The notes under the pieces are model-generated. The model had not been told where the DNA came from. It made no database searches and worked only from the letters and a program-made list of their open reading frames with translations. Both the position numbers and the translations under genes were made by a program. A DNA stretch of 39,541 bases, from positions 1 through 39,541 of the IMG/VR virus record IMGVR_UViG_3300025326_000108. One strand, given 5' to 3'. This document shows, in pieces, positions 3,796 through 38,602 of this stretch. Each line of letters opens with the position of its first letter. The stretch's first letter is position 1. Source of the stretch: a virus.

Positions 3796-3914
3796 CACTC
3801 GCACCTCCCGCAAACCCGCCGGCCCGTGAAGCTATCGCGGCCCATGGTGGCGGAGCAGTTGGGGCAGCGCGAGCGGACGAGCCTCCCGGGCCCGGGCCCC
3901 CAGAAGCCCCTCAA
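3795..3914 (-). CDS. Mini zinc-ribbon protein, 39 aa
   Basis: The TTG start overlaps the Gp37/Gp68 stop as TTGA. The product is almost only a zinc ribbon: CPNC, 14 residues, then CGRC at the C-terminus. Such minimal CxxC-x14-CxxC proteins fold around one zinc ion. The next gene starts in a TGATG overlap, supporting a real gene between two coupled neighbours. Function unknown; transcription or ribosome-associated roles are known for similar folds but are not shown here. Confidence 0.6.
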   Translation of the reverse strand: MRGFWGPGPGRLVRSRCPNCSATMGRDSFTGRRVCGRCE

Positions 3915-4819
3915 GGCACCAGCTCCTGCTGGCCGCGAGCTCGGCCCGGGCGATGGAGCGCAAGGCAGAAGTGGCAGAGCCAGGAGCCCCAGGGCCGGCC
4001 CGCGCGCTCGAACGGGTAGAAGGTGAGCGGCAGCGCTCTCGGGTCTCGGCGCCCGCACTCGCCGCACGCGAGCTCGGGCCGCCAGTCCCGGGGGAACTCC
4101 TTGAGCTCGGCCCCCGAGGGCAGGATCTGGAGCAGGAGCTCGTTGCGCCGCCCGCTCTGCTGCTTCCCGAAGAAGGGTACGCTGGCCTTCGCGCATTGGC
4201 TCAGGAGCGAGCGCGCCCAGCTCCACTCCATGGGGCGGAAGTCCGGCCCGCTCTCCCCGCCCACGATCACCCACCCGAGGTTCTCGGCGCAGGTAGCCTG
4301 GAGGTATCGCGTGAGGTCGAGCCGGCCCAGCAGGGGCTCCGCGCTCACGAAGTGCAAGCGAGCCGGGATGTCGAGCAGCACGGGAAGGCGCCGGTCGGCC
4401 ATGAGCTGGTTCTCCACCGAGGCGCCGAGCCAGACATTGGGGTAGCCATCGTCCCAGTCCGGGGGCAGGCACGGCTCCAGGCGCTCGACGCGCTTGGTGA
4501 GGAGCTGCCAGGTGAGGTTGGGCGTCTCCCGGATGAGCTGCCAGACCTCGGGCCGCCAGGCGTCGGCCTCCTCGATGAAGAAGTCGCTGATGGAGCAGCT
4601 GAACACGAGCTCCTGGCGCCCAGCAGCTGCCGCGCGCTTCTGCCAGCGCCTTGGCTCGCTCCAGTCCTTCGAGCGCAGCACCACGCGGAAGTCCCGCTTC
4701 ATGCGCGTGCGCACGAGCTCCTCAGCGTAGCAGTTCGCGCAGCCCGGCGAGACCTTCTGGCAGCCGATCCAGGGGTTGAAGGTGTGGTCTGTCCAGGAGA
4801 TCCCGGTGCGCTCGCCCAT
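3911..4819 (-). CDS. Phage Gp37/Gp68 family (DUF5131) radical-SAM-like protein
   Basis: The N-terminus TGISWTDHTFNPWIGCQKVS followed by PGCANCYAE is diagnostic of the phage Gp37/Gp68 (DUF5131) family, with a CxxxxxxxCxxC arrangement resembling a radical-SAM [4Fe-4S] site. Further family blocks are WQLLTKR, GASVENQ, SAEPLLG and WVIVGGESGP. ATG 4819 is preferred over GTG 4825 because GGAGG lies 8 nt before it. A C-terminal extension adds CGECGRR and CHFC, a possible extra zinc ribbon. The substrate is unknown; a modification reaction on nucleic acid or nucleotide is inference. Confidence 0.85.
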   Translation of the reverse strand: MGERTGISWTDHTFNPWIGCQKVSPGCANCYAEELVRTRMKRDFRVVLRSKDWSEPRRWQKRAAAAGRQELVFSCSISDFFIEEADAWRPEVWQLIRETPNLTWQLLTKRVERLEPCLPPDWDDGYPNVWLGASVENQLMADRRLPVLLDIPARLHFVSAEPLLGRLDLTRYLQATCAENLGWVIVGGESGPDFRPMEWSWARSLLSQCAKASVPFFGKQQSGRRNELLLQILPSGAELKEFPRDWRPELACGECGRRDPRALPLTFYPFERAGRPWGSWLCHFCLALHRPGRARGQQELVP

Positions 4820-4821
4820 CC

Positions 4822-5091
4822 TCACGGCCTCCGCTCAAGCACCCACGAGAGGAAGGCCAGGTTGGCCACGTCAACGGCCTCCTGCGCGCGTTCTCGGCCA
4901 CGAGCTGCCGTCCATTCGATTACTTCCTCCAGGAGGTGCCGGGTGATGGCCTCGGCGTCGAGCCCGTTCTCCCAGTCGAAATCCGGGTGCGTAACGCTCG
5001 TGGCGCCGGGGTGCTTGAGCTCGCGGGCCACGAATTTGGCCCGCATGGCCCGCCCGAACTCCGCCAACAACAGGTCGAGGACATCGGCCAA
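4822..5091 (-). CDS. MazG-like all-alpha NTP pyrophosphohydrolase, 89 aa
   Basis: The TTG start at 5091 is preceded by GAGGAGGAG, giving an 89-residue protein. HLLEEVIEW provides an ExxE pair and EAVDVANLAF provides ExxDxxN, the metal-binding pattern of MazG/dUTPase-like all-alpha NTP pyrophosphatases. The family cleaves (d)NTPs to monophosphates and pyrophosphate. In viruses it can adjust nucleotide pools or lower alarmone levels. It ends in a GTGA overlap region with the Gp37/Gp68 gene. It is one of two such genes in this operon. Confidence 0.6.
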   Translation of the reverse strand: MADVLDLLLAEFGRAMRAKFVARELKHPGATSVTHPDFDWENGLDAEAITRHLLEEVIEWTAARGRERAQEAVDVANLAFLSWVLERRP

Positions 5092-5093
5092 GC

Positions 5094-5744
5094 CTACTCC
5101 TCCTCGGGAGGCTGGTGGGGCCCGCGGTGCGGGTGGGCGAGCCTGCAAGGGATCTCGCCCTCGCGCGCCAGGATCTGGGCCGACAGGTCGGGCCGGTTGT
5201 AGAAGCTCGCTGGGTAAGCCTGGAGCCCGGGGGGCAAGCCCCCCGGGTTGTCCCCAGCCCCGCTGCTACCAGGCGAAGGGTGCTTTGCCCCTCGTGGAGT
5301 CAAAGCCATTGAGGGGCTCGGGGCCGAGGACGAGGATGGGCAGGGAAGCCATTGAGCCGTAGAAGCGAAGAACTCCCTTATGAAGCCTCGGGGAAGGCGG
5401 TCGCCCTTCTGGGGCCGGCCCGCTCGGTAGCGCCAGAGCTCAAGGCTTACGCCTTGCTGCCAGAAGTCCAGGGCCAGCGCCTCGATCTTGCGCCGCCGCA
5501 CGATCACGTTGTCGTTGCCCGCGTCCATGCAGACCTGTACCCAGCGCTGCTGGCCCCTTTTGACGGCGATGAGGTCGAACGCGCCGAAAAAGTCGTGCGC
5601 CTGGCTAATGGGCCGGCGCTTGCCGCCCGGCCCCGGTATCCAGACGATCTTGGCGAGCGCGCGCTCCACCCGGTAGTGCTGGGCCTCCAGCTCGGCCTTG
5701 GCCTTGCGCTCCAGCTCGTTGCCCTTTTCGCGGGCCGAGGGCAT
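5094..5744 (-). CDS. PD-(D/E)XK nuclease-like protein (Hjc-like), 216 aa
   Basis: The ATG at 5744 overlaps the TOPRIM gene stop as TGATG. The N-terminus EKGNELERKAKAELE followed by AFDLIAVKRGQQRWVQV has the layout of archaeal resolvase-type or other PD-(D/E)XK nucleases: helix with Glu, Asp strand, then a strand where E/QxK is expected. Here the last motif reads QVC, lacking the usual Lys, so activity is uncertain. The C-terminal ~80 residues are Pro/Gly/Ser-rich, and their codons include the perfect hairpin at 5226-5247. Likely acts on recombination or packaging intermediates with the TOPRIM protein. Confidence 0.55.
   Translation of the reverse strand: MPSAREKGNELERKAKAELEAQHYRVERALAKIVWIPGPGGKRRPISQAHDFFGAFDLIAVKRGQQRWVQVCMDAGNDNVIVRRRKIEALALDFWQQGVSLELWRYRAGRPQKGDRLPRGFIREFFASTAQWLPCPSSSSAPSPSMALTPRGAKHPSPGSSGAGDNPGGLPPGLQAYPASFYNRPDLSAQILAREGEIPCRLAHPHRGPHQPPEEE
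5226..5247. repeat. Perfect 10-bp GC inverted repeat
   Basis: CCCGGGGGGC-AA-GCCCCCCGGG lies inside the nuclease coding region. It resembles the terminator stem at 2058-2079 but has no T-run after it on either strand. It may be an intragenic mRNA hairpin or a mobile palindrome. Confidence 0.6.
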
Positions 5745-6619
5745 CAGTCCCACCCCCGGGTGAGCTTCTTGATCGTCTTGCGAGCTTCGTCCTGCTCGCT
5801 CGGTTCGGCGCTCTCGGAGTCCGCGAGGATCTCCTCGTCGATGCACTCCCGGATGGCCTCTTCGACGAGCTGGGTGAGGAGCGTGGGTTCGAGGGCCTCC
5901 AGTTCGGCCTTGCCCTCGACGAACTTCCCGCTGATCGAGCTCTTAGGGTTGCAGGGCTCCAGCTCGATCCCCTGTTGCTCGACCAGCTCCTTGGTGAGCG
6001 CGAGCCTCACGGTCTCGATAGGCACGCCGAAGCTGGCCAGCGTCTCGTTGAGCGTCTGCTCGATCTGGAAGCCCTCGTCGTCGTAGTCCCCGAGGTAAAT
6101 CACGCGCAGCTCCTCGTGCTCCTGGAGCACGCGAATGGCCCAGGGGCGGAAGTTCGCGTGCAGGTGGCTCTTGCCGGCCTGCCCCTTGATGGGGTAGATC
6201 GAGACATCCCACTCCTGGGTCGTGGTCTCGAAGTAGGGGATCAGCCCCTCCTTTTCCGTGATGAGCACGGGCACGATAGGCTGGCCGCGCCACTTGGGCA
6301 CATAGTAGGCCTCGGCCAGCCGGACGAATTTGGCGCGCTCGCGCAGGATGAAGCTCTCGGGCGAGTCGTCGCGCAAGAGGGGGCTGAAATCCCGCGAGCT
6401 ATCCAGCACGGCGTTCCAGGGCAGCACGCCCTGTTCGCGCAGCTCCACCAGGATGCGGTTGACCTGGTTGAAGGTCGTGCGGCTCTTCTTCAGCACCTTG
6501 GCGGCCTCGGCTCGGTAGGCGTACTGGCGCGCGTTGAGCGCGCCGTACTTCTTGTAGACGGTCGGGAGGAAGAGGCGCAGCCGCTCGGCCAGGCTGCCCG
6601 CCGGAACCTTCGAGCTCAC
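5744..6619 (-). CDS. Topoisomerase VI A / Mini-A-like TOPRIM protein, 291 aa
   Basis: The GTG at 6619 overlaps the previous stop as GTGA. The N-terminal ~100 residues contain NARQYAYRAEAAKVL and a winged-helix-like stretch, the position of the 5Y-CAP tyrosine region in Spo11/topo VI A. The TOPRIM domain follows: LITEKEG (catalytic Glu, about residue 120) and YLGDYDDEGF (DxD, about residue 178). No B subunit (GHKL ATPase) gene is present. This fits the Mini-A type of topo VI A-like proteins known from mobile elements. Probable role: DNA cleavage or topology during replication or recombination. Confidence 0.75.
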   Translation of the reverse strand: MSSKVPAGSLAERLRLFLPTVYKKYGALNARQYAYRAEAAKVLKKSRTTFNQVNRILVELREQGVLPWNAVLDSSRDFSPLLRDDSPESFILRERAKFVRLAEAYYVPKWRGQPIVPVLITEKEGLIPYFETTTQEWDVSIYPIKGQAGKSHLHANFRPWAIRVLQEHEELRVIYLGDYDDEGFQIEQTLNETLASFGVPIETVRLALTKELVEQQGIELEPCNPKSSISGKFVEGKAELEALEPTLLTQLVEEAIRECIDEEILADSESAEPSEQDEARKTIKKLTRGWD

Positions 6620-6972
6620 AGGCGCGCCCCCTTCTGGCTCTCGGCCTCTTCCCACGCCTGCACGCTCAGGAGGAACTTGAGCGCCATGGCCCCCACCTGG
6701 ATGGCCTCCTTTTTGAGCTTGCGGCGCCGCTCGGTCTGATCGCCCAGGGTCTTGCCGCGCACCTCGTCCCAGAGCTCGTCCAGCTCCTCGTTGAGCACGG
6801 CAAAGCCCCAATGGGCGTTGCCGAAGACCCGCGCGTGGCCCGCGGCGTTCGACTTGTCGTACTCGGCCAGGAGGGCCTGAAGCGCTCGGACGACCTCCTT
6901 GCGGGCGCGTGTTTCCGCGCTTTGGGCGTTGGGCGTCGTGATGAACATCTCGACGTCCAGCTCGTCTTTCAC
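6616..6972 (-). CDS. MazG-like NTP pyrophosphohydrolase, 118 aa
   Basis: The GTG at 6972 lies 2 nt after the upstream stop. HWGFAVLNEELDELWDEV gives the ExxE-type first metal motif, and KEAIQVGAMALKFLLSV aligns with the second helix of phage MazG-like proteins, which are often annotated by this pattern. The second ExxD is not a textbook match, so I hold the call moderately. It is located before the TOPRIM gene with a GTGA overlap. A role in nucleotide pool control is likely. Confidence 0.6.
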   Translation of the reverse strand: MKDELDVEMFITTPNAQSAETRARKEVVRALQALLAEYDKSNAAGHARVFGNAHWGFAVLNEELDELWDEVRGKTLGDQTERRRKLKKEAIQVGAMALKFLLSVQAWEEAESQKGARL

Positions 6973-17509: not shown

Positions 17510-18892
17510 TCAGAGCCAGCCCATCACCTCCCCCATGTGGTGGCTCGCGCCCTGGCGATCTGAGCGCCACGCGATCTCGAAGCTGTCGGCCCGGTCGTCG
17601 TGGGCCGCCTTCGGGAGCTGGAGGAGCTCGTAGATCAGGTCTCCTGAGTGCACGGGGTGCCATTTAACCGTTCCGTTCTCGACCCAGGGCGCCACCGAGC
17701 CGATCCGCTGGTACTTGTCCCGCCCGGGCGTGGGCCTCAGGGGCACGATGGGCAGCTCGGCAGCCAGCGGCCTGTAGGCCTGCCATTGAAACTGCACGTC
17801 CTCGATGGCGATGTGCCTTGGGCGCCACTTGGCGTTGAGGAGCCGCAGCTCCTCGAATTGGCGCGGCAGATCCCAGATGTCCGCCCGGGTCTCCAGGTGG
17901 TAGCAGAACTGGCGCGGCTTGTCGAACCCCAGCACGGTGGCAGCGAAGTAGTCCGAGCCCACGCCCTCCCCGATGGCGGGGTCGACGCCGGCCACGATGT
18001 CCAGCTCCTCCAGCTTGAGCTGCGCCGGGTCGTAGTAGTTGCGCTCAAACCACTTGCGCCGGAACATCTCGCCCTCGATGGCCGCGGGGTCGTTGAGGAA
18101 CTTCTGCGCGAACGCGCGCTCCCCCATGGAGGTGCGGCGCGCCGCGAGCACCGTAGGCGTGTAGACCTCGGGCCAGAGCGGGCTGCCGTCCTCAAGGTAG
18201 GCCTTGAAGACCACGCTCCGGTGGCCCGCGCGCTGCATGAGCTTCCCGTAGGTGTCCTCCATGTGCCAGCGCGTCCCGATGTAGTAGGCCCGGGCGCCTG
18301 GTTCAAGCCGCCCGTAGGCCGTCTCCAGGAGCCAGTCCCAGGTGCGCGTGCGCTCGACCTCGCTTAGCTCCGAGTCCTGGTCGCCAATGTCGTCGAAGAC
18401 CTCCCGGGTGAAGCGCTCGCCCTCGATGTTGGAGGCTCGCCCCGCCGCGAGCACGCTGGGCGTGCGCAGCGTGGAGTCGCGGCCCAGCACCTCGAATTGA
18501 GCGTCCGTCCACTTGAGCTCGGGCGAGTAGAAGGCGCCGAAGTCGGCCACCAGCCTGGGGTCTTCGAGCGCGCGCCGCACCGCGCGCACCTCGCCCTGCG
18601 CGCGGTCGGAGCTGCGCGACCCAATGAGGATGCGCTCGCGTCGGTCGCGCGTGAGCCACCAGCAGGGCAGGAGCAGCGCCAGCGTGCTCGTCTTGGTGTG
18701 GCCCACGGGCGCCATGAGCACGAGGTGATCCAACCCGGGCTGGAGGAAGAAGTCGAGCCAGGCCCGCGCGAACTGCGGGATCTTCGGCTTGTCGGGCGTG
18801 CTGAGGTAGAACTCGTAGAAGCGCTCGGGATCTTGGAGCGCGAGATGCCGCCTTGAAGCCCGCTGGAGGAGGTGCTGCGTGCGCTGCGTCAC
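17510..18892 (-). CDS. terL: Terminase large subunit, 460 aa
   Basis: GTG 18892 overlaps the upstream stop as GTGA. The ATPase half has a Walker A-like APVGHTKTST (about residue 60) and Walker B REVFDDIGDQD (about 165). The nuclease half has the RNase H-type acidic residues: VAGVDPAIGEG (about 302), IAIEDVQ (about 362) and HDDRADSFEIAW (about 434). It translocates DNA into the prohead and cuts it. The Walker A lacks the usual GK order (HTKTS), as in several phage terminases. It lies behind the tail genes instead of before portal. Confidence 0.95.
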   Translation of the reverse strand: MTQRTQHLLQRASRRHLALQDPERFYEFYLSTPDKPKIPQFARAWLDFFLQPGLDHLVLMAPVGHTKTSTLALLLPCWWLTRDRRERILIGSRSSDRAQGEVRAVRRALEDPRLVADFGAFYSPELKWTDAQFEVLGRDSTLRTPSVLAAGRASNIEGERFTREVFDDIGDQDSELSEVERTRTWDWLLETAYGRLEPGARAYYIGTRWHMEDTYGKLMQRAGHRSVVFKAYLEDGSPLWPEVYTPTVLAARRTSMGERAFAQKFLNDPAAIEGEMFRRKWFERNYYDPAQLKLEELDIVAGVDPAIGEGVGSDYFAATVLGFDKPRQFCYHLETRADIWDLPRQFEELRLLNAKWRPRHIAIEDVQFQWQAYRPLAAELPIVPLRPTPGRDKYQRIGSVAPWVENGTVKWHPVHSGDLIYELLQLPKAAHDDRADSFEIAWRSDRQGASHHMGEVMGWL

Positions 18893-19155
18893 CCGTAGAC
18901 CTCCTGGGCCTTCTGGATCACGACCCGGATGGTCGAGCGGTCGAGCTGGCACCCTGGGCACTCTCCCTGGTAGAGCCGGTGCCCGAGCTTCCTGGTCGCC
19001 AGCGCGACCAGCACCCGCACGGCGTGCGGGCGCAGGCTGTCGGGGATCTCGGCCCTCAACTGCTGGGAGTGGAAGGGACAGAAGCGTCCGGCGGGCTGGG
19101 CGATGCGCTCACCTCCTCCTGGTGCTCCAGGATGCGCTCGCGGCAGGGATCGCAC
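18889..19155 (-). CDS. Small Cys protein between TerS and TerL, 88 aa
   Basis: GTG 19155 overlaps the TerS 3' end by about 100 bp. The TerL start overlaps this stop as GTGA, which argues that it is translated. FCPFH and GECPGC provide three Cys/His pairs for a zinc site. A helical segment (SLRPHAVRVLVALATRK) lies between them. It may link TerS and TerL or bind DNA during packaging; this is inference from position. Confidence 0.55.
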   Translation of the reverse strand: MRSLPRAHPGAPGGGERIAQPAGRFCPFHSQQLRAEIPDSLRPHAVRVLVALATRKLGHRLYQGECPGCQLDRSTIRVVIQKAQEVYG

Positions 19156-19682
19156 ACCAGCTTGACCAGTTCGTCGGCCAGGGCCTCGGCGTCCGGCGCC
19201 GGCCCCTCGGGCGAGCTCGCGCTCACCACGGTGAACTCCGCCAGTTTGGGCTCGTGGAGCTCGTCCCGCCGGATCGCCTCGTAGATCTCGTTGCCCGAGC
19301 GGATCATTTGGGCCGCGATGTAGGCCGCGCCCCTGTGGTCGCCTCCGCTGCGGAGCTTTTCCGCCTGCTCGCTCAAGAGCCCGATACCGGCGAGCCGCAG
19401 CCTCCAGGCGCGGTCTTCGAGGTGCAGGCGGCTCTTCGCGTCCGCGGCCTGCCTGAGGCCCACACTTGCGTCACGAGCCGCGACCAGCCCCCGGCCCGGG
19501 CTCAGGGCCGTAGAGCCCTTAGGCTCGCCTTGGGGCCCGCGCAAGCGCTTGACGATCTTCTTGGCGTTGTCCGCGCTCTTCAGGCCGAACTTGCGCGCGA
19601 GCCGCCGGTAGGAGGCGCCCGCGAGGTGCTCCAGGTAGAGCTGGCGCTCCTGCTCGTCCCCCAGGAGCTTGGGTCGCGCCAT
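19056..19682 (-). CDS. terS: Terminase small subunit, 208 aa
   Basis: ATG 19682 overlaps the hub-gene stop as TAATG. The N-terminus LGDEQERQLYLEHLAGASYR followed by RLARKFGL is a helix-turn-helix of the TerS type. KIVKRLRGPQGEP follows, then long helices (WRLRLAGIGLLSEQAEKL, AAYIAAQMIRSGNEIYEAI) suited to oligomerisation. The C-terminus has an acidic tail. It recognises packaging sites and regulates TerL. Confidence 0.8.
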   Translation of the reverse strand: MARPKLLGDEQERQLYLEHLAGASYRRLARKFGLKSADNAKKIVKRLRGPQGEPKGSTALSPGRGLVAARDASVGLRQAADAKSRLHLEDRAWRLRLAGIGLLSEQAEKLRSGGDHRGAAYIAAQMIRSGNEIYEAIRRDELHEPKLAEFTVVSASSPEGPAPDAEALADELVKLVCDPCRERILEHQEEVSASPSPPDASVPSTPSS

Positions 19683-22015
19683 TAGCCCATCACCCGCCAG
19701 CGCTTCTTGTCGGCCTGCTTCAGGCCACGCAAGAGCAACTTGGGGCTCTCGGCTGGTGGGCGGAACTTGGTCGTGGCTGGGATGCCGCGGAAGAAGAACC
19801 CTGGGGGCTGGCCCTTGGGCGGAGGCCACTCTAGGCTCTTTTCCGTGCAGACCAGCTCATCGTCCAGCCCCCCCGTCGAGGCCTTGAGGTGGAAGAGCTC
19901 GCCCGGGTAGAGCTCGTGGAAGTCGGCAGCGTAGAAGAGCGCCTCCTTGACCACGCCCAGCATGATGGCTTTCAGGCCGTCCGCAACCCGCGTGGCGTCG
20001 GCGTTGACGCCCAGCCGCTCATCGACTTGCACGAACTCGCGCGTCCCGTAGGTGGCGATGCTCCCCGCATCGCTGCTGGAGCCCGAGACCCCCGCAGCTC
20101 CATAGACCGTGACCTTGTTGAACATCGCACTCAAGTCGCGCTGCGCTCGGGCCCCGTAGAGCTTGCCGCCCGCTTGGTCAGCCATGATGCCGTAGCGCCA
20201 GGTCTCGTAGAACGAGAGCATTTGGGGCCCGCTGAGCGCGGTGCCCGTGAGGATCGCCAGGTTGTTCATTGGCCCCGCAAAGGCGTAGCCGCCCCCCACG
20301 AGGTCGCCCACGCGCGCAATCCGCGAGCCCGAGGTAATGGTCACGGTTCCGGTGAAGCCCACGGAGGCTTTCTCGCTCCCATCCACATAGAGCTTGGCCG
20401 TGCTGCCATCCCAGGTTAGGCCGAGCAGATGGTCGACCCCGTCGTCAATGGTGAAGCCAGAATTGAACGGGATCACCGTAGAGGTCGCGCCCACATTGCG
20501 CAAGTAGGCCACGAGCTGGTGAGCGTTACCCCCGGTGGTCGTCGCGCCGACCTCCAGGTAGATCAGCGGGTCGCCGCTCGTGCCTGGGTCTTGCAGCTGG
20601 AGGATGCCGCGCCCGTCCGTGGTGGTTTTCATCGCCACCAGAATGGAGCAGCTCGTGAAGCTCTGGCTGAACGCCAAATTCAGGTAGTCATTCGAGCCGT
20701 CGAAGTTGAGCGCGCGCCGGTACTGGCCGCTGGCGTAGGTCGAGGGCTCGCCCGCGCCCTTCAATGTCCCGTGGTTGCCCAGCCCGCTGAAATCGACCGC
20801 CCGCAGGCCGCCGATGTCATCCAAGGGCCAGTAGCCCTTGAGGTTCGAGAGCGCGAGCGCTGCCTGGCGCAGCGGCAAGCACTCGCCCGCGACCTGGAAC
20901 CAGTCGTCGATCATCCACTCGCGCCTGCGGTTCACCCTGGAGTAGATCAGGCTCTCAAGGGCCAGGCCCTCGACGGCGTCCAGGGTGGGCCGGCCCTTGA
21001 ACGTGCGCGTGATCGCCGTGCCCACGGTCTTGACGCTGTATTTGGCCAACTGGGTGTAGCCAGAGCCAATGAGGTTCTCAATCACGGTCGAGAGTCCCAC
21101 GCCCGTGTAAGAGTCGGGCACGCTGGTGCGCAGGCCCTCGGAAAGGAAGTCGCGCGCCCACACATGCACGCTCTCGCCCTCCTGGGAGCGGTCTTCGACT
21201 TTCTCCACGATGCCCTGGAACTCGACGAAGCTCACGCCATCCTCGCGCTCCACCAGGAGCTCCAGCTCGTCGTTCTCAGCCCAGCGGTTGAACACCGCCG
21301 ACGCATCGTTGGCCGTGACAAACTCAAGCTCGCCCGAGCCATCGTGCATGGGCAGCCGGTACTTGACCGCTGAAAAGTAGTTGTCCGAGGGCCCGAGCAC
21401 GCGGAAATCGTCGACGCCGAACTTGTGCACGACGGCGTCCCGGTCGGCCATCAGGCCGATCTGCGTGCCCGAGGCCAAGGGCGAGCCGTCCGTCCCGCTC
21501 CAGGTGTTCTCGTACTTGCCCGCCCAGACGGAGCCGCGCTTCAGCTTGAAGAGCCCGCCCGAGGGGTTGAAGTAGACCTCGTAGTAGAGCTCCTGGCCAT
21601 GCGCTGCGCTCCAGCCCTGGTTGGTGATCAGGGTCGGCGTGCCAGCGTTGTAGCGCTTGAGCTGGAGGCTGCCCATATCCTGCTCCAGCACATAGCCCGT
21701 GAAGGCTCCAGCCCTCGGGTCGACGCCATTGGCGAAGAAGAAGAAGCGGAAGAGGCCGTAGGTCTGGAGCGCATCTCCCGTGAGCTCGCGCATCCTGAAG
21801 AGGAAGGTGCGGATCGCGTCCTGGGCGGGCGGGGTCGTGATGGTCATGCGGCCGTCCGTGCTGGCATCGACATTCTGCACCTTGCCGTAGCGCTCGACAA
21901 CGGGCGAGCCCGGCGCCTCGATCACGGTAATGCCCTGGGCGTTCGTCCACTTGGCTGGCGTGCCCCCCGAGGCCTCCTGAAAATTGTCCTTGAAGAGCAG
22001 CTTGCGCACCTTCAT
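19682..22015 (-). CDS. Tail hub/baseplate protein with inserted LamG domain, 777 aa
   Basis: ATG 22015 overlaps the previous stop as ATGA. The N-terminal ~200 residues are a LamG/DUF1080-like beta sandwich (LLFKDNFQEASGG, GLMADRDAVVHKFGVDDFRV). Residues ~225-385 resemble siphovirus tail-hub domains (FVTANDASAVFNRWAENDELELL, STVIENLIGSGYTQ). Residues ~400-620 are a full LamG jelly roll (LKGYWPLDDIGG, LNFDGSNDYLNL, KLYVDGSEKASVGF). The hub fold resumes to the C-terminus (NKVTVYGAAG, LYPGELFHLK). So the tail tip itself appears to carry ligand-binding domains. Likely receptor-binding. Confidence 0.75.
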   Translation of the reverse strand: MKVRKLLFKDNFQEASGGTPAKWTNAQGITVIEAPGSPVVERYGKVQNVDASTDGRMTITTPPAQDAIRTFLFRMRELTGDALQTYGLFRFFFFANGVDPRAGAFTGYVLEQDMGSLQLKRYNAGTPTLITNQGWSAAHGQELYYEVYFNPSGGLFKLKRGSVWAGKYENTWSGTDGSPLASGTQIGLMADRDAVVHKFGVDDFRVLGPSDNYFSAVKYRLPMHDGSGELEFVTANDASAVFNRWAENDELELLVEREDGVSFVEFQGIVEKVEDRSQEGESVHVWARDFLSEGLRTSVPDSYTGVGLSTVIENLIGSGYTQLAKYSVKTVGTAITRTFKGRPTLDAVEGLALESLIYSRVNRRREWMIDDWFQVAGECLPLRQAALALSNLKGYWPLDDIGGLRAVDFSGLGNHGTLKGAGEPSTYASGQYRRALNFDGSNDYLNLAFSQSFTSCSILVAMKTTTDGRGILQLQDPGTSGDPLIYLEVGATTTGGNAHQLVAYLRNVGATSTVIPFNSGFTIDDGVDHLLGLTWDGSTAKLYVDGSEKASVGFTGTVTITSGSRIARVGDLVGGGYAFAGPMNNLAILTGTALSGPQMLSFYETWRYGIMADQAGGKLYGARAQRDLSAMFNKVTVYGAAGVSGSSSDAGSIATYGTREFVQVDERLGVNADATRVADGLKAIMLGVVKEALFYAADFHELYPGELFHLKASTGGLDDELVCTEKSLEWPPPKGQPPGFFFRGIPATTKFRPPAESPKLLLRGLKQADKKRWRVMG

Positions 22016-29988: not shown

Positions 29989-31176
29989 TCAGCTGAGGTC
30001 GCGCAGCTGGCCCGAGGCGCGGGGATACCAGCTGGTGAGCTCCGCAACGCCGTAGTAGACGATGCGGTGCACGAAGGCGTTGAGGTAGACGAAGTTGTCC
30101 CCGACGAGGCCGCCGAACTCGCGTCCCAGCACCTGCTTCAGGGTCTTCTGGTCGACCAGGTAGGCGCGCCCGATCCCGCCAGAGTCCTGGACGACGTTGT
30201 CGTCCATGACGATGGGCCGGCCCTCGTAGACCGCGCACTTGTAGCCTCCAGCCTGCCCCGGGACGGGCGTGACCCCGGCGATCCGGTTGGCCACCGTCTC
30301 GCTCGCGTAGCGCGTGCCCGAGCCCAGGATGTTGCCCAGGCGCTTGTGCGTGAGCGGGTCGGTGATGTAAATCTTCTCCCCGATGTCGTCGCCCCAGCGC
30401 GAGATCAGGTTGGCCGCCAGGTCGTCCCAGAGATCCTGGGTGAGCGGGCGCACGGCTCCGCCGTTGTTGAGGTTGAGCGAGTCGTACCAGCTCTCGGCGG
30501 AGCGGTCGACGCCGTGCAGGTCTTCGTCCCCGTCCGTGTAGCCCAGGTCGATGCGCGCCTGCGTCGTGGCCGTCACGCGGTCGAGGCTCTCTGGGTTGTT
30601 GACCGCCAGGGTGTTGAAATCCCGCAGGAGGTCGGTGTCGTAGGCCGCGAGGAAGTCCTCCAGGACTTCCTGCGCATTCCCGTTGAACGTGATGGTGTCG
30701 TCCTTGCCGGAGTAGATTTCGAGCCGGCTCGACATCTCGGTTGCGACGGCCTCCTCCTTGAGCCCTACCCCGATCTCGTAGTAGACGGGCTCGACCGGCG
30801 TGGGCACGGCTCCGCCCTCAGCGATCCCGGTGTTGCCCGTGATGCTGGCCGTCTTGACCGCGCGGTAGCCGAACTTCCTGTAGCCCTCGCGCCCGATGGC
30901 GCCCGCGGCGTTCTTCTGCCGCAGGTACTGGACGAAGGTGGCGGGGCCGAAGAGCGCGTTGAACGCCGCGGCGTCCGCCGAAGTGAGCGTGGCCTTCGTG
31001 AGGCGGTCGCCCTCGCCCTCGCTCATGGGCACGAGGTCGCTGGTGCCATCCTGGTTGCCCAGCACGGCGAGCGGTCGAGCGAGCCATGTGGCGATCCCTT
31101 CGGAGTCCATCCCGGCAAAGGGGAACTCGTCGGGGTGGCGCGCGATGTAGGCGTCTGTGTACCGGCGGCTTGGCAT
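29989..31176 (-). CDS. Major capsid protein, HK97 fold, 395 aa
   Basis: ATG 31176 behind GAGGAGACG. It follows the protease and scaffold genes, as the capsid gene does in HK97-like viruses. Sequence features fit: an N-terminal arm, an E-loop region (ITGNTGIAEGGAVPTPVEPV), a long spine-type helix (AQEVLEDFLAAYDTDLLRD) and a C-terminal P/A-domain half (GEKIYITDPLTHKRLGNILG, KCAVYEGRPIVMDDNVVQD). Confidence 0.85.
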   Translation of the reverse strand: MPSRRYTDAYIARHPDEFPFAGMDSEGIATWLARPLAVLGNQDGTSDLVPMSEGEGDRLTKATLTSADAAAFNALFGPATFVQYLRQKNAAGAIGREGYRKFGYRAVKTASITGNTGIAEGGAVPTPVEPVYYEIGVGLKEEAVATEMSSRLEIYSGKDDTITFNGNAQEVLEDFLAAYDTDLLRDFNTLAVNNPESLDRVTATTQARIDLGYTDGDEDLHGVDRSAESWYDSLNLNNGGAVRPLTQDLWDDLAANLISRWGDDIGEKIYITDPLTHKRLGNILGSGTRYASETVANRIAGVTPVPGQAGGYKCAVYEGRPIVMDDNVVQDSGGIGRAYLVDQKTLKQVLGREFGGLVGDNFVYLNAFVHRIVYYGVAELTSWYPRASGQLRDLS

Positions 31177-32011: not shown

Positions 32012-32680
32012 CTACGGATTTTCCCCAGGGTTCTTCCCCGGAAGGCGCAGCGGGACGAGTTGGCGCAGGGGGGCGCTCAGGGGGCCTGTGAGCTCGCCCG
32101 TTGAGCTCTGGAAGGCGAACGCCCGGAGCGCGGCCTGGGGCTCGCCCGGCAGAAGATCGCCCAGCTGGGCGCTCTTGGCCACGGCCACGGCCGTGACGCG
32201 CGCCCCGGGGTTGGCCGGCGAGGGCGTCCAGGCCACCTCGACGATGTCCACCTTGGTAATGCGGCAGTTCTTCCCCGCCTGGCAGATGCGCTGGAGCACC
32301 TGCCCGCCCACGCTGAAGCCCCCGTTGACCCCGAAGGGCGCGATCTCCGCGCTCCAGATGTCGTCGATGAGCTTGGAGCCGCGCACGATGCCCGCGCGGA
32401 TCTTGAGCTTGTCGCCCTCGCGCTTCCACGCCAGGATCTTCCCCAGGGGGACAAAACCCTTGCCGCCGTAGCCGTGCTTGTACGAGATGACGGCAAATTC
32501 CCCCACCCAGGGCATGACCTCCTCGATGGCGCCCAGCTCGATCACATCGCCGTGCGCGTCCCGGATCTCCTGCGTGATGAAGCCCTCAAGGAGCCGGTCG
32601 GTCGGCCAGGTTCGGGCGTGCGAGGTGAGCGTCCAGCCGCGGTGGTCGAACGCGCCTCCAGGGCCCTGCGGGGTGGGCAT
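32012..32680 (-). CDS. Prohead maturation protease, 222 aa
   Basis: ATG 32680. The sequence has the layout of the HK97/U35-type herpesvirus-like serine proteases: FAVISYKHGY (catalytic His), GFVPLGKILAWKREGDKL, and GGFSVGGQV (nucleophile Ser) followed by a strand VDIVEVAWTPSPANPGARV typical of the family. It cleaves scaffold and capsid arms during head maturation. It has its own TATA-like box just upstream. Confidence 0.85.
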   Translation of the reverse strand: MPTPQGPGGAFDHRGWTLTSHARTWPTDRLLEGFITQEIRDAHGDVIELGAIEEVMPWVGEFAVISYKHGYGGKGFVPLGKILAWKREGDKLKIRAGIVRGSKLIDDIWSAEIAPFGVNGGFSVGGQVLQRICQAGKNCRITKVDIVEVAWTPSPANPGARVTAVAVAKSAQLGDLLPGEPQAALRAFAFQSSTGELTGPLSAPLRQLVPLRLPGKNPGENP

Positions 32681-32715: not shown

Positions 32716-33036
32716 CTACCGCAGCTGCACGCCCGGGCTCCCCGCGGCGTCCAGCTCGATCTTCCCCCCGGTAAGGTGCAGGTGCAGCTCCCAGTCCCGG
32801 CCCGCGAGCCTAAAGCGTGCGCGGTAGGAGGGCCGTAGGGTGGGAGCCTCGCGGTTGCCGTCCCAGCCCCAAATGCGGCGCTGCTCCCGCCCGGCGCCAC
32901 GCGCGAAGGGCTGGACGAGCTCCATGCTAAGCTCCGCGTGCTGGAACTCGTAGACGGCCAGGCCCTCGACGCCCTCGCCCCAGGGGTGCGGGGCCTCCAG
33001 GAACTCGACGCGCAGGAGCCTTAGCGTGGCACTCAT
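32716..33036 (-). CDS. DUF6527-like small protein, 106 aa
   Basis: ATG 33036 overlaps the gp10-like stop as ATGA. The core WGWDGNREAPTLRPSYRARF then ELHLHLTGGKIEL resembles the W-WDG-PTL-PS and H-x-GG/DG-x-I pattern of the DUF6527 family, common in phage genomes and of unknown function. The Cys pair of canonical members is not evident. Family call tentative. Confidence 0.55.
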   Translation of the reverse strand: MSATLRLLRVEFLEAPHPWGEGVEGLAVYEFQHAELSMELVQPFARGAGREQRRIWGWDGNREAPTLRPSYRARFRLAGRDWELHLHLTGGKIELDAAGSPGVQLR

Positions 33037-33578
33037 CTTCCCGGGTCTCCTATGCGCCTGTGGAAGCCCGCCATCCTGAGGTCGAAGACCTCTTGGGCGT
33101 CCTGGAGCGAGCGGTTGAAGGCCATGCGGAGGAACGGCCTGGGGTTGATCCCGTGGTGGTAGATTTTCCACCGCACGGCCTGCGCCACCCTGAGGGCCTC
33201 ACGGTCGCGCAGGGCGCGCGTGCCCGCCTTGCGCTTCGGCTTGACCAGCACCTCGCCCGAGCTGCTCTCTATGCGCAGGTTGCGCTTCACCCACGCGAGG
33301 ATCGGCGCCAGCGGGGGCATGTAGCGCCCGCGGCCCGCAGCCGGGCCCGTCCCGAACTCCACATAGGCCGCGTAGGGCGTGCCCACGATCACCAGCTTGC
33401 GCAGGAAGGTCTCGACATCGGCCTCGATGCTGGAGCGCAGCGTCCCAATATCCGAGATGCCCATGGCCTCGACGTTCTCGCCCGCGCGCTGCGCCACGAG
33501 GTCGGCCAGATCGCTCAGCGCACCGTCCAGCTCCAGCACGAGGAGCTGGCCCATGCTCTGGTCGATCTTGCCCTTCAC
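33033..33578 (-). CDS. HK97 gp10-like head-tail joining protein, 181 aa
   Basis: GTG 33578 overlaps the previous stop as GTGA. The pattern GTLRSSIEADVE, VIVGTPYAAYVEFGTGPAA and NPRPFLRMAFNRSLQDAQEV matches HK97-gp10 family neck/tail-completion proteins (GT-Y-A-x-YVEFGTG and a C-terminal PFLRPA-type helix). It should occupy the portal-to-tail interface. Its place between portal and protease, before capsid, is unusual. Confidence 0.85.
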   Translation of the reverse strand: MKGKIDQSMGQLLVLELDGALSDLADLVAQRAGENVEAMGISDIGTLRSSIEADVETFLRKLVIVGTPYAAYVEFGTGPAAGRGRYMPPLAPILAWVKRNLRIESSSGEVLVKPKRKAGTRALRDREALRVAQAVRWKIYHHGINPRPFLRMAFNRSLQDAQEVFDLRMAGFHRRIGDPGR

Positions 33579-34020: not shown

Positions 34021-34293
34021 CTACTCCTCCGGGGGCTCCTGGCCCTCGGGCATTTCGGGCAGGAACCGTTCGGGCGGCGCGCCCGCCTTGAACCCGATGG
34101 CCGAATAGATGAGCTCGCCCTCCAGGTTGTAGCGCCGCTGGTGGAACTCGTAGCCGTAGCGCTCGATGAGCTCGGGCACATCGGGCACGCGCTCACCATC
34201 GACGCTCAGCACCACGAGCTCCTCACGCTCGCCGGGCTTGAGCGGCCCCGGCTCCTCGTCCTCTTGCGGTTCAGATGTGCTCTCGTTTGTCAT
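34021..34293 (-). CDS. Hypothetical protein, 90 aa
   Basis: ATG 34293 overlaps the portal-fusion gene by 23 bp. An acidic disordered N-terminus precedes a small domain (LVVLSVDGERVPDVPELIER, YGYEFHQRRYNLEGELIYSA), and the tail is acidic and Pro-rich. Not recognised. Confidence 0.55.
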   Translation of the reverse strand: MTNESTSEPQEDEEPGPLKPGEREELVVLSVDGERVPDVPELIERYGYEFHQRRYNLEGELIYSAIGFKAGAPPERFLPEMPEGQEPPEE

Positions 34294-37200
34294 TTAGCCA
34301 CCAGGCCCGGAGCTTCTGGAATGCGGCCCAACTCTCCGGGAAGTCGGACTGCATCGTGCGCTGGAAGTCCGCGCCCTTGCCTTCGGGGCGCGCGATTAGC
34401 TGGCTCATCTCGGCAAAGTTCTCATTGGCGGCGTGAACTTCGCTGCCCACCTTGCCCGTGAGGTTGTCCCGCGCGTAGGCCGTCACGCCGCCTTCCTTCT
34501 TGGAAGCCTGCTCGAACTCCGAGAGCCAATGGAGCACCTCGACCTTGGGCGTCCAGCGCTCCATAACGGCATCGCGCTGCTCTTGGTAAGCCCTGGAGGG
34601 GTCGGTCTTGCGCTCCTCCTCGATGAACGCCTGCTCCTCCTGCCGGTGCTTCTGGACGATCCTGTCCTTGCGCGCGCCCCAGCGCCAGTAGTCCTGCTGC
34701 GCCGCCTTGAACCCCTCGGAGTCCTTAGGGGTCTCGCGCAGTTTGGCCGAACTCTCCCTGAAGCCCTTTTCGACCTCCAAAAGGCGCTTCATCGTGGGGT
34801 TGTTCTCGGAGTCGCCCCACTCGTGACGCCGCTTGATCGAGGCCTTGTCCCACGAGGCCTGCTCCATGAGGTCGGGCTTCTTGAGCCTGGCCAGCTCCTC
34901 GTTCAGGCCCTCGACGCCTTGGGCGCCGTGCAGCTGGAACTGTTGCCAGAGCGCATGAGCGGCCTCGTGGTGGATCACGCGGTGCGCGAGCTGCGCGCTG
35001 CCGAGGTTGACGTCCGCTTGGAACAGGCGCACGCGGCGCTTCGACGGCTCGGCCACCGGGAGGAAATGCCCCGCGGAGCGCTCGATGTTGCGCCCGCGTT
35101 CGTCCTTGAGCCAGGGCCCGATCTTCGTGTGGGCCTCGATGCCCTCCGGCAGAGCCTTCTGGATCGCGGGGTCGAGGCTCTCGAACGCGGCTTTGATGTA
35201 GCCCTTGGTGTGCGCGTAGAGCTTGGGGTCAAGCCGCAGCGTGCGCTTGCCGCCCTGGAACGCCACCTCGTGCTCCTCGAACCCCTTGGTCGGGTAGACG
35301 TTGGAGTAGCTGGTGGGCTCGATGGGCTTGAGCGGCGGCGGCTGCGGCGGCCCCGTTTGGCCGCGCTTCCACATGGGCTTCTTCAGCCCCTCGGTGTAGA
35401 GACTTTGCTTCTTGATCTGGCGCCTCCAGAACTCCAGGTCTTGCGTGCCCCAGACCTTCGGGTCGGGGTTGGCCCAATGGCCTTCGGGCCCCAGCGTCTC
35501 CAGCTCCTTGTAGTCGCTGAACCCCGGATCGCCCGGCTTGTTGAACCCGAGGCGATCCGCCCCCCAGAGGTTGGTGACATCCACGATGCCCATGAGCTCG
35601 CCTTGCTGCCCGCCCACATCCTGCTCCCCGCCCATGGAGTAGAGCGCCACCACATAGTGGGGCTTGCCGCCGAACTTGACCTTGGCCAGCTGGGCGTCTG
35701 CGCCGTTCGTGCGCAGCTGAGCGACGAGCAGCGCGCTCACGGGCCCGCTGGGCGAGACTCCGTGTTCGGCCACATAGTCGTCGTAGTTGGCCACGACCGC
35801 CCCCCAGGCGCCGCGGATCTGCCCCTTGCCGCGGCCCTTGAGATACCAGGGGAGACGCTCCAGGCTCTCGAAATCGAGCTTGTGACGCTCCCAGTCGACG
35901 CCCGGCTGGGCTGGCGCGGGCATCCGCTTGGAGCGCTCGCCCTCTGGGGCCTCGGGAGCCTGGAGCTCGTCCTCCGGGATGGCCTCTTCGCCCTCGTCGG
36001 GCTGGCCGACGGGCCCGGCGTGCTGCCCGGGCTTCGAGCCGAAGCGCCCGTCCGAGGCTCTAGGGTGCTTGCCCTCGAACTCCGGGTTCTGCACCCTGTT
36101 GAGCACTTCGAGCATGAGCAGCGGAGCCGAGGCCTGCGCCACGGCCGCCTGTCGCTGCAACAGCGGGCCTGTGGCGGGCTCAAGGGGCTCAAGGGCCCAA
36201 TCACCCGAGAGGGCCAACACGACGCGCCGTAGCCCATGGCGGCAGCTGAAGTGGGGGTGCCACTCCCGGTAGACCCACGGGGGGTAGTCGGCCATCTCCT
36301 TGAGCCCCTCCTCCTTGACGATGACGCCGAGCTCCTCAAGGGCCAGCCCGGCCTGCGGGACTCGCGCCTTGATGCGCTCACAACACTTGGTCGTGCGGAA
36401 GTCCGCTGGGCCTTCCCAGCGATAGCGGAACTGGCTCTCGGGGTCGCGCTTCGCGTACCCCATGGCGCGCCCCTGGTTGAGCACGACCTGCGTCTCGTTG
36501 CGCGCGATCCGCTCCAGCCTGAAGGTCTCAGCGTTCACCACCTCGCGCATCTGGCGCACCATGGTGCGGAGATCCAGGCCCAGCGGGCTGGTGAACGCGC
36601 GCTCGATCACGCCGTGGATCTCCACGGTGGCGCTCTGCTTCATGCCCGCGAACGCTTCCCAGAGCGGGCTCGCCTCGGTGAGCGCGCGCAGCGCGGGGCG
36701 CAGCAGCAGCGCCTCAGCTGGCGCAACGCCCGCCTCCTTGAACCCCGCGAGGAACGCCTCGGACATCCGGCCCTCGGCCACGCCCGCGAGCCTGTTGACA
36801 ACCTTGTCGATCAGCGCCTCAGCCGCGGCCTTTGCGGGCGCCGGGTCGCGCCATGTGACGGCCTGCCTTGAGAGCTCGGGGAGGAGGCGCTTCCACGTCT
36901 CGTCCAGCGCTTGTCGAAAAAAGGCTTCCCGCGCCGACTCCTTCTGGAGCTGCTTCTGCTCGGGCCTCTTGCCCATGTCCTCGCGGGCTTCGTCGCTGGG
37001 CTGCTGCGGCGCTTCACCTCCAGGCAGCCCCCCGCCAGGGCCCTCAGGGCCGCCGAACGGGCTCGTCTCGGGCTTCTGCATGAGCTCCTCGAAGTTCTCG
37101 ATAGAGAACTTCCAGTTGCCCTCGTCCTCAAGGCGGATCTGGCCGCCCATGCCGAGCACCGTGTTGATCATGTCGAGGTTGAGCTTGCGCTCGTTGAGCT

Positions 37201-38602
37201 CGACCTGCTCGTCCCGCTCGATGGCCTCGGGGAACCGGATGCGCCAGTCCGAGCAGCCCGCGGCCTCAGCGAGCGGGTCAAAGAAGCGCTCCTGGTGGTT
37301 GGAGTGCGCGCGCTGGGTCGTCCGGCCCGAGACCTCCAGCTGGAGCCTCTCGTTGTTCAGCCCTCCGCCCCCGCCTTCACCGCCGGCCTGGTTGAGCTGC
37401 ACGGGCGAGACTCCGTAGATGGCGGCCATCTCAAGGATCTTCTGCTTCGTCTGCTCGATGATCTGCTGCTCCGAGGCCGGCAAGGTGAAGGGCACCCATT
37501 GGACTCCGCCCTTGTCGCTCGTGCTCTCTACGGCCACCTTGGGGATGTGGTTCGGGTTGCGCCTCACCAGGTCGTCCTCGATGGCCAGCTGGTCGCGCAG
37601 CGACTTGTAGTTGGACGTGATGAACACCAGGATGCCCTTCGGCGGGCGCTGCTGCTCGGCCTCCCTGGAGACCTGGCGCGCGAAATTCACGAGCGTCTTG
37701 GCATTGTCCCAGTTCGAGAGCACGGGGCTGAAGCCGAACTTGGGCGAGGGCTTGTAGCGGCTCCAATGGATCACCTCCCAGTCGAAGTAGCCGATCTCGG
37801 GTCTTGAGGCCTCCTTGAACGCGACCCAGCGCACGGGCCTCGCGGCCTTGCCGCAAACGCGGCAGGGCTCGGGGCTCTCCGTGACGTTGTTCTCCCGGTG
37901 CAAGACGCAGGTGAACCAGCCCTGGCCGTCCCGGCTGAGCCAACGCCCTCGCCGGTCAGCCACCATGCCGAGCACGCTGGGCTCCAGCCGCTCGACCCGC
38001 ACGAGCGCCTGCGCCAGGATCTCGCCCTCGTGCTCGACCAGGTAGTCGAAGTGCAGGCAGACAAAGGCGTCGTCCAGGATGTTCAGGTCGTCCTCCAGCC
38101 ACTCAAGGAGCTCCAGGAAGCTGCGCGCCTCGTTCGAGGGCTTCTGGAGCAGCTGCTCCAGCCGCGCCTTCTGGAGCTCCGAAGGCTGGCGCGTCTCGCC
38201 CCCGCACTCTGGGCACGAAATCTCGACCTGCGCGCCCTCCCAGAGGCAGAGCGCGTTAAGGCACTTGGAGCCAAAGGCCGGCTCTACCTCGGGGGGGTGC
38301 CTCAAGACCTCGTTGCGCACGGCCTGCACGATGGCCGCGAGCGGCGCACAATGCATCGCCATGAGCTGGAGGTCGGCAACGAACTGCGGGTAGGGCTGGA
38401 TGTCGGGCTTTTCCGTCCCGATGTGCCCGCCCACCGCGGGGATCAAGAGGTCGGCCTGGCTCTTCGAGAGGATCGCGCGCAGGTTGAGCTCCTCGGGCGT
38501 GAGAGGCGGCTCCTCCTCCCGCGGCAGCGTCTGGATCGGCAGCACGACCGTCCGGGGCCGGCGCAGCCACGAGCTCGCCCTAGAGAGCAGGGAGGGCGCC
38601 AC
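34271..38602 (-). CDS. Portal / gpF-like / HExxH metalloprotease fusion, 1443 aa
   Basis: GTG 38602 lies about 30 nt after a TATA-like box. Residues ~1-540 are a portal protein (FARQVSREAEQQRPPKGILV, LEMAAIYGVSPVQLNQAGGE), with two zinc-ribbon-like inserts (about 112-135, ending CPECGGE; about 230-260, CVLH and CRVCG). Residues ~550-800 are Mu gpF/SPP1 gp7-like (RLERIARNETQVVLNQGRAM, HPHFSCRHG). After PRASDGRFG and a linker come unknown domains. A C-terminal region carries RVIHHEAAHALWQQF (HEAAH at 1212-1216) and NENFAEMSQLI, a plausible third zinc ligand (Glu 1394 or 1398). The frame is uninterrupted. Confidence 0.9.
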   Translation of the reverse strand: MAPSLLSRASSWLRRPRTVVLPIQTLPREEEPPLTPEELNLRAILSKSQADLLIPAVGGHIGTEKPDIQPYPQFVADLQLMAMHCAPLAAIVQAVRNEVLRHPPEVEPAFGSKCLNALCLWEGAQVEISCPECGGETRQPSELQKARLEQLLQKPSNEARSFLELLEWLEDDLNILDDAFVCLHFDYLVEHEGEILAQALVRVERLEPSVLGMVADRRGRWLSRDGQGWFTCVLHRENNVTESPEPCRVCGKAARPVRWVAFKEASRPEIGYFDWEVIHWSRYKPSPKFGFSPVLSNWDNAKTLVNFARQVSREAEQQRPPKGILVFITSNYKSLRDQLAIEDDLVRRNPNHIPKVAVESTSDKGGVQWVPFTLPASEQQIIEQTKQKILEMAAIYGVSPVQLNQAGGEGGGGGLNNERLQLEVSGRTTQRAHSNHQERFFDPLAEAAGCSDWRIRFPEAIERDEQVELNERKLNLDMINTVLGMGGQIRLEDEGNWKFSIENFEELMQKPETSPFGGPEGPGGGLPGGEAPQQPSDEAREDMGKRPEQKQLQKESAREAFFRQALDETWKRLLPELSRQAVTWRDPAPAKAAAEALIDKVVNRLAGVAEGRMSEAFLAGFKEAGVAPAEALLLRPALRALTEASPLWEAFAGMKQSATVEIHGVIERAFTSPLGLDLRTMVRQMREVVNAETFRLERIARNETQVVLNQGRAMGYAKRDPESQFRYRWEGPADFRTTKCCERIKARVPQAGLALEELGVIVKEEGLKEMADYPPWVYREWHPHFSCRHGLRRVVLALSGDWALEPLEPATGPLLQRQAAVAQASAPLLMLEVLNRVQNPEFEGKHPRASDGRFGSKPGQHAGPVGQPDEGEEAIPEDELQAPEAPEGERSKRMPAPAQPGVDWERHKLDFESLERLPWYLKGRGKGQIRGAWGAVVANYDDYVAEHGVSPSGPVSALLVAQLRTNGADAQLAKVKFGGKPHYVVALYSMGGEQDVGGQQGELMGIVDVTNLWGADRLGFNKPGDPGFSDYKELETLGPEGHWANPDPKVWGTQDLEFWRRQIKKQSLYTEGLKKPMWKRGQTGPPQPPPLKPIEPTSYSNVYPTKGFEEHEVAFQGGKRTLRLDPKLYAHTKGYIKAAFESLDPAIQKALPEGIEAHTKIGPWLKDERGRNIERSAGHFLPVAEPSKRRVRLFQADVNLGSAQLAHRVIHHEAAHALWQQFQLHGAQGVEGLNEELARLKKPDLMEQASWDKASIKRRHEWGDSENNPTMKRLLEVEKGFRESSAKLRETPKDSEGFKAAQQDYWRWGARKDRIVQKHRQEEQAFIEEERKTDPSRAYQEQRDAVMERWTPKVEVLHWLSEFEQASKKEGGVTAYARDNLTGKVGSEVHAANENFAEMSQLIARPEGKGADFQRTMQSDFPESWAAFQKLRAWWLNDKREHI

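What the first reader, a model, noticed from the sequence alone, without database searches (positions are those of the whole stretch)
34271..38602. Portal, gpF and HExxH metalloprotease-like domain fused in one 1443-residue protein
Seen: portal features, then RNET/CRHG-type gpF features, then HEAAH and a distal NENFAEM in a single frame. Known: portal-gpF neighbours and occasional fusions exist, and HExxH is a zincin signature. Inference: twelve portal copies would each carry a protease-like domain, either cleaved off and packaged, or acting at DNA entry or maturation. The virus also encodes a normal serine maturation protease, so this domain probably has a different target.
Basis: partly seen in the sequence, partly recalled or inferred. 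Interest (0 to 1): 0.8.

Follow-up and report, generated by a model that had tools for sequence, protein, structure and literature searches.

The report
Viral portal protein carrying zinc-protease cargo
One gene of an archaeal-type tailed virus makes a single 1443-residue protein that joins the DNA-entry ring of the virus shell, an inner-shell docking protein and what looks like a zinc-dependent protease; joining such cargo to the docking protein is known from other viruses, but putting it on the entry ring itself is an unusual variant.

Summary
One uninterrupted minus-strand frame (34271-38602, 1443 aa) encodes a portal (residues ~68-543), a gpF/MuF domain (~640-797), a linker, an unassigned domain and a C-terminal HExxH region. 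Portal and capsid protein match archaeal tailed viruses best. Portal-gpF fusion itself is ordinary: it is annotated in HCTV-2 and HHTV-2, and I found it in vir519 and nine metagenomic relatives, all ending where gpF ends. What is special is the extra ~640 residues. Sequence supports a zincin: His1212, Glu1213, His1216, Tyr1376 and Glu1394 align with five other viral zincin-like sequences, and a profile of the six ranks lethal factor (a zincin) first among 177,635 PDB sequences, weakly (E 0.027). The fold is not shown: both AlphaFold models failed. Four related settings hold a separate zincin-like gene near gpF, and one phage contig has gpF fused to one. Best explanation: a virion-borne protease cargo anchored through portal-gpF, probably cut loose in its disordered linker and ejected; a role limited to virion processing is the main rival. 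It is a new variant of the known MuF-effector/polyvalent-protein kind. Close homologues, target and activity are unknown.

The parts
34271..38602 (-). Complete ORF, 1443 aa (GTG start, stop included): portal - gpF - linker - unassigned domain - zincin-like domain
   Evidence: uniform GC3
36983..38602 (-). Portal part, residues 1-540
   Evidence: PHROG 18178 E 7e-35, residues 68-543; Pfam Phage_portal 5.9e-6, below cut-off; 25-31% identity to archaeal-virus portals
38204..38263 (-). First Cys cluster of the portal, C114/C119/C130/C133
   Evidence: invariant in 9 portals
37853..37909 (-). Second Cys cluster of the portal, C232/C247/C250
   Evidence: invariant in 9 portals
36212..36685 (-). gpF/MuF domain, residues ~640-797 (RNET 701, W729-GP-D, C741, CRH 787-789)
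   Evidence: TIGR01641 and PF04233 below cut-off; BLAST to gpF of haloviruses 3e-18 and of metagenomic viruses 1e-26
35888..36211 (-). Linker, residues ~798-905, Pro/Glu-rich in its second half, with NPEFEGKHPRASDGRF (HPR at 846); proposed cleavage and release region (inference)
   Evidence: same NP..HPR..DG[RK]F..[KR]P motif in HHTV-1 gp13; disorder and cleavage not tested
35333..35887 (-). Unassigned domain, residues ~906-1090
   Evidence: no Pfam match at E up to 10
34274..35320 (-). Zincin-like domain, residues ~1095-1443
   Evidence: alignment A6; A6 profile against PDB
34955..34969 (-). HEAAH, residues 1212-1216 (two Zn ligands and the general base, predicted)
34493..34915 (-). Long insert between the two active-site helices, residues ~1230-1370, mostly helix in the models
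   Evidence: low overall confidence; the insert itself is the best-scored part
34409..34483 (-). TAYARDN...NENFAE, residues 1374-1398, with Tyr1376 and predicted third ligand Glu1394

Best explanation
The protein is the portal of an archaeal-type tailed virus, extended first by a gpF/MuF domain (usual in this lineage) and then by ~640 residues of virion cargo ending in a zincin metallopeptidase that looks catalytically competent. Portal-gpF acts as the address label: each portal subunit that enters a procapsid carries the C-terminal part with it, presumably inside the shell where gpF sits. Because a portal ring cannot itself be ejected, the cargo is probably released by a cut in the ~100-residue linker after gpF, made by the S78-type prohead protease or by the zincin itself, and then leaves with the genome to cut a host (or defence) protein early in infection. 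SHOWN: single frame, domain order, homology of portal and gpF, alignment of zincin active-site residues. INFERRED: enzymatic activity, orientation into the shell, cleavage, ejection, host target.
For: Active-site residues aligned in six sequences. A6 profile ranks a zincin first in PDB (E 0.027) with both motifs aligned; without the window row seven of the eight best hits still include only lethal factor and astacins, i.e. all eight are zincins (E 0.1-2.2). Zincin-like proteins encoded beside gpF: HHTV-1 gp13, two genes before gpF; L292/L274; L136 and L122. A phage contig has gpF (PHROG 241, 2e-25) fused to a zincin-like region (L150). Other cargo in the same place: gpF-ADP-ribosyltransferase in L304 (9e-20); ADP-ribosyltransferase gene between portal and gpF in HCTV-5. 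Literature: 20% of 191 putative MuF toxins carry a metallopeptidase (PMC5576092); zincins are the commonest domain of polyvalent proteins (PMC5512222); 2H and PBECR domains occur fused to MuF or portal domains (PMC5512222).
Against: No fold evidence: AlphaFold pLDDT 52 and 47, Foldseek no zincin. No family library recognises the C-terminus and tblastn finds no relative in 50,697 phage or 72,556 plasmid records, so conservation of the active site is only shown against distant sequences. Alignment of the distal Glu helix depends on which sequences are included (A6 finds it; A7 and A9 do not), and that helix alone does not score above shuffles. No release site or target is known.
Confidence: 0.5

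Rival explanations
1. The zincin is a processing enzyme of the virion only: it cuts its own polypeptide (or neighbouring head proteins) during assembly or maturation and has no host target.
For: Polyvalent zincins are proposed to self-process: phage P1 DdrB is cut before packaging (PMC5512222). Being fused to the portal puts 12 copies at the right place. The encoded S78-type protease matches only weakly.
Against: The S78-type protease, scaffold and capsid genes are in the usual order, and relatives mature with portal-gpF alone, without the extension. N4 virion RNA polymerase keeps its zincin uncut (PMC5512222).
Confidence: 0.28
2. The C-terminal part is structural or catalytically dead; HExxH is a coincidence or relic.
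For: HExxH occurs in 5.5% of shuffles; no fold evidence; no family match.
Against: Composite motif is rare (1e-5, post hoc); window protein outscores 1000 shuffles against a profile made without it (8.9 bits versus 7.7 for the best shuffle); neighbourhood pattern of zincins near gpF.
Confidence: 0.14
3. Two genes joined by an assembly or sequencing error: a normal portal-gpF gene followed by a separate zincin-bearing gene, as in L292 or HHTV-1, with the intervening stop lost.
For: All other portal-gpF proteins seen end at gpF or within ~130-150 aa of it; zincin genes are separate elsewhere.
Against: Frame and GC3 are unbroken across the junction; no candidate start codon between residues 795 and 900 has a Shine-Dalgarno-like sequence close in front, whereas several window genes do.
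Confidence: 0.08

Closest known systems
Portal-gpF fusion proteins of haloarchaeal viruses (HCTV-2 gp23, HHTV-2 gp32; PHROG 2662)
   Same: Portal and gpF in one polypeptide, colinear
   Different: They end at gpF (786-797 aa); no zincin extension; portal of another subgroup
Portals of Druskaviridae (HVTV-1, HCTV-5) and marine archaeal-virus relatives (PHROG 18178)
   Same: Same portal type with two Cys clusters
   Different: Portal stands alone, gpF is a separate gene or not found
MuF polymorphic toxins (PMC5576092)
   Same: gpF/MuF domain with a C-terminal enzymatic extension, metallopeptidase in 20% of putative toxins
   Different: There MuF is a separate gene behind portal; here it is fused to portal; no immunity gene was looked for
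Zincin-like MPTase domains of polyvalent proteins, e.g. phage P1 DdrB and N4 virion RNA polymerase (PMC5512222)
   Same: HExxH, distal Glu helix, variable insert between the two, packaged virion proteins
   Different: Other partner domains; insert here is unusually long (~180 residues between motifs); clade membership not tested
HHTV-1 gp13 and the L292, L136, L122 proteins
   Same: Zincin-like domain encoded near gpF; HHTV-1 gp13 shares the NP..HPR..DG[RK]F linker motif
   Different: Separate gene; sequence similarity restricted to active-site motifs

Membership tests
Archaeal-tailed-virus portal (PHROG 18178) | Profile match over the portal core | tested here: met
   E 7e-35, profile positions 47-564 of 613
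gpF/MuF | MuF domain | tested here: met
   By homology to annotated gpF (E 3e-18; 1e-26 to L263); Pfam and NCBIfam models hit below their cut-offs
Zincin-like metallopeptidase | HExxH motif | tested here: met
   HEAAH 1212-1216
Zincin-like metallopeptidase | Third ligand (Glu) on a downstream helix | tested here: inconclusive
   Glu1394 aligned in A6 and predicted helical, but alignments A7 and A9 place it differently
Zincin-like metallopeptidase | Three-stranded sheet plus helices fold | tested here: inconclusive
   AlphaFold pLDDT 52 and 47; Foldseek nothing
Zincin-like metallopeptidase | Match to a curated zincin family model | tested here: not met
   No Pfam, NCBIfam or PHROG zincin model; six-sequence profile reaches a PDB zincin at E 0.027
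MuF polymorphic toxin | MuF with C-terminal enzymatic or toxin domain | tested here: inconclusive
   Depends on the zincin assignment
MuF polymorphic toxin | Cognate immunity gene or toxicity | not tested
   -
Polyvalent protein | Several unrelated effector domains delivered during invasion | tested here: inconclusive
   Structural domains plus one putative enzyme; residues 906-1090 unassigned; delivery not testable here

The most novel reading that the evidence does not exclude
The portal ring itself is the carrier: up to twelve zinc proteases are loaded per virion as covalent extensions of the portal, released by proteolysis next to the DNA exit channel, giving a fixed, high dose of an injected archaeal-virus effector.
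Probability: 0.25. Interest if true: 0.68.

Novelty: new variant of a known kind. Interest (0 to 1): 0.46.

Why it matters
MuF-linked effectors are described mainly from bacterial phages, where gpF is present in one or two copies per capsid in SPP1 (PMC5576092). Fusion to the portal would fix the dose at the portal copy number and demands a release cut, so a portal-borne protease is a directly testable system for how tailed viruses load and free injected proteins. The survey also points to a little-noticed set of zincin-like proteins near gpF in archaeal-type viruses, including the cultivated HHTV-1, which can be studied at the bench.

Tried and rejected
Single-protein scans of viral contigs with the whole protein and the C-terminus: nothing. 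NENFAEM back-translated: 17 contigs, none with HExxH. C-terminus against phage and plasmid records: nothing. Linker peptide against phages: only chance-level hits. C-terminus against the full records of 30 relatives: nothing. Profile of the four separate zincins did not pick out the window protein above background in a database of all ORFs. AlphaFold with one and with four sequences: unusable. Considered and rejected: hidden frameshift (GC3). Portal tree: long branches, fused portals cluster but one origin is not established. The window's host is not determined.

Full report
What is there. The window is a 39,541-base linear record of IMG/VR. On its minus strand, 34271-38602 is one open frame of 1443 codons. 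GC at the third codon position is 0.83-0.97 along all of it, which argues against a frameshift, although a point error that removed a stop cannot be excluded without reads. Order of genes on the strand: portal-gpF-zincin, a 90-codon ORF overlapping its end, an HK97-gp10-like gene (33033-33578), a weak S78-type prohead protease (32012-32680), a scaffold-like ORF, and the capsid gene (29989-31176).

Portal and gpF. The portal belongs to PHROG 18178 (E 7e-35). Its best named relatives are haloarchaeal viruses. The capsid protein hits only HCTV-1, HCTV-16 and the Methanofastidiosa virus vir519. Portal and capsid protein are reported to be rather specific markers of archaeal tailed viruses (PMC8651126), so the head module is archaeal-type; the terminase, in contrast, is most like bacteriophage ones, and the host is not known. 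Hundreds of mostly marine contigs encode this portal as a separate protein. Portal-gpF fusion is nevertheless common: HCTV-2 and HHTV-2, many haloarchaeal-type contigs, vir519 and nine contigs with the window's own portal type (L309, L267, L303, L278, L289, L302, L301, L130, L291). In the nine, the protein ends 63-70 residues after the start of the searched gpF motif, i.e. where gpF ends. Some halovirus-type fusions add 130-150 residues of two other kinds. So the fusion is ordinary and the 640-residue extension is the unusual part.

The C-terminal part. No Pfam, NCBIfam or PHROG zincin model matches. The case for a zincin is: (i) HEAAH 1212-1216 and the TAYARDN...NENFAE segment 1374-1398; (ii) alignment A6 with five other viral sequences, in which H1212, E1213, H1216, Y1376 and E1394 are invariant; (iii) a profile of A6 ranks lethal factor, a zincin, first in the PDB with both motifs aligned (E 0.027), and the profile without the window row returns zincins only (lethal factor, astacins; E 0.1-2.2); (iv) the window protein outscores 1000 shuffled versions against a profile built without it, narrowly; (v) composite motif in 1e-5 of shuffles, chosen after the fact. 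Weak points: the distal motif alone is not significant, alignments A7 and A9 do not keep it, and two structure predictions have no confidence around the active site, so Foldseek results say nothing. I rate a true zincin at about 0.8.

Context. Zincin-like genes stand near gpF in HHTV-1 (gp13, two genes before gpF gp15), in L292/L274, in L136 and in L122. HHTV-1 gp13 carries two HExxH regions and the same linker motif NP..HPR..DG[RK]F as the window protein; among 318 loci only the window and HHTV-1 have it. L150 is a phage contig with gpF (PHROG 241, 2e-25) followed in the same ORF by a zincin-like region (PHROG 16681, 8e-6). L304 has gpF fused to an ADP-ribosyltransferase. The place after portal-gpF is thus used for exchangeable enzymatic cargo.

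Mechanism. Literature gives the frame: MuF proteins with metallopeptidase extensions are proposed to be virion-delivered toxins (PMC5576092), and zincins of polyvalent proteins are proposed to self-process, as in P1 DdrB, or to act after injection; N4 virion RNA polymerase is packaged uncut (PMC5512222). I favour packaged cargo with release in the linker and action in the host (0.5), over virion processing only (0.28), a dead or structural domain (0.14), or an artefact (0.08). The shown part ends at domain order and active-site alignment; activity, cleavage, copy number and target are inference.

Novelty. The pieces are known kinds. A portal-gpF-zincin chain I did not find in any of the records searched, and the archaeal-virus survey PMC8651126 mentions neither MuF, polyvalent nor metalloprotease in its main text; that is absence in what I could search, not proof. 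New variant of a known kind.

Noticed in passing
window 37853-38263 (portal residues 114-250): Two Cys clusters in the portal, invariant in nine archaeal-type portals and partly in vir519 and L130; look like zinc-binding knuckles.
   Followed up: partly
L318:2391-5693 (HHTV-1 gp13): 1100-residue protein of a cultivated haloarchaeal virus, annotated hypothetical, with two HExxH regions and the HPR..DGKF linker, encoded two genes before gpF.
   Followed up: partly
L292:258-2651, L274, L136:2-1444, L122:1172-2761: A divergent set of zincin-like proteins near gpF with no Pfam match.
   Followed up: partly
L304:4052-5428 minus: gpF fused to an ADP-ribosyltransferase (PF03496, 9e-20).
   Followed up: no
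L132, L119, L135, L121, L124, L136; and L128: Halovirus-type portal-gpF or gpF proteins with C-terminal extensions of two kinds; the first matches PHROG 37024 in L132.
   Followed up: no
window 17510-18961 minus: Large terminase, most like bacteriophage ones and some 15 kb from the portal gene, whereas portal and capsid are archaeal-type: a mosaic genome.
   Followed up: partly
window 3911-4825 minus: DUF5131 / PHROG 2045 gene; vir519 has a PHROG 2045 gene too.
   Followed up: no
window 5744-6811 minus: Topoisomerase-like protein (PHROG 6247, 2e-35).
   Followed up: no
window 19682-22015 minus: 777-aa ORF with a concanavalin-A-like lectin domain (PF13385), next to tail genes.
   Followed up: no
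L113, L114: Archaeal-type portals in contigs binned as Maricaulis and Cytophagaceae MAGs; perhaps binning errors.
   Followed up: no
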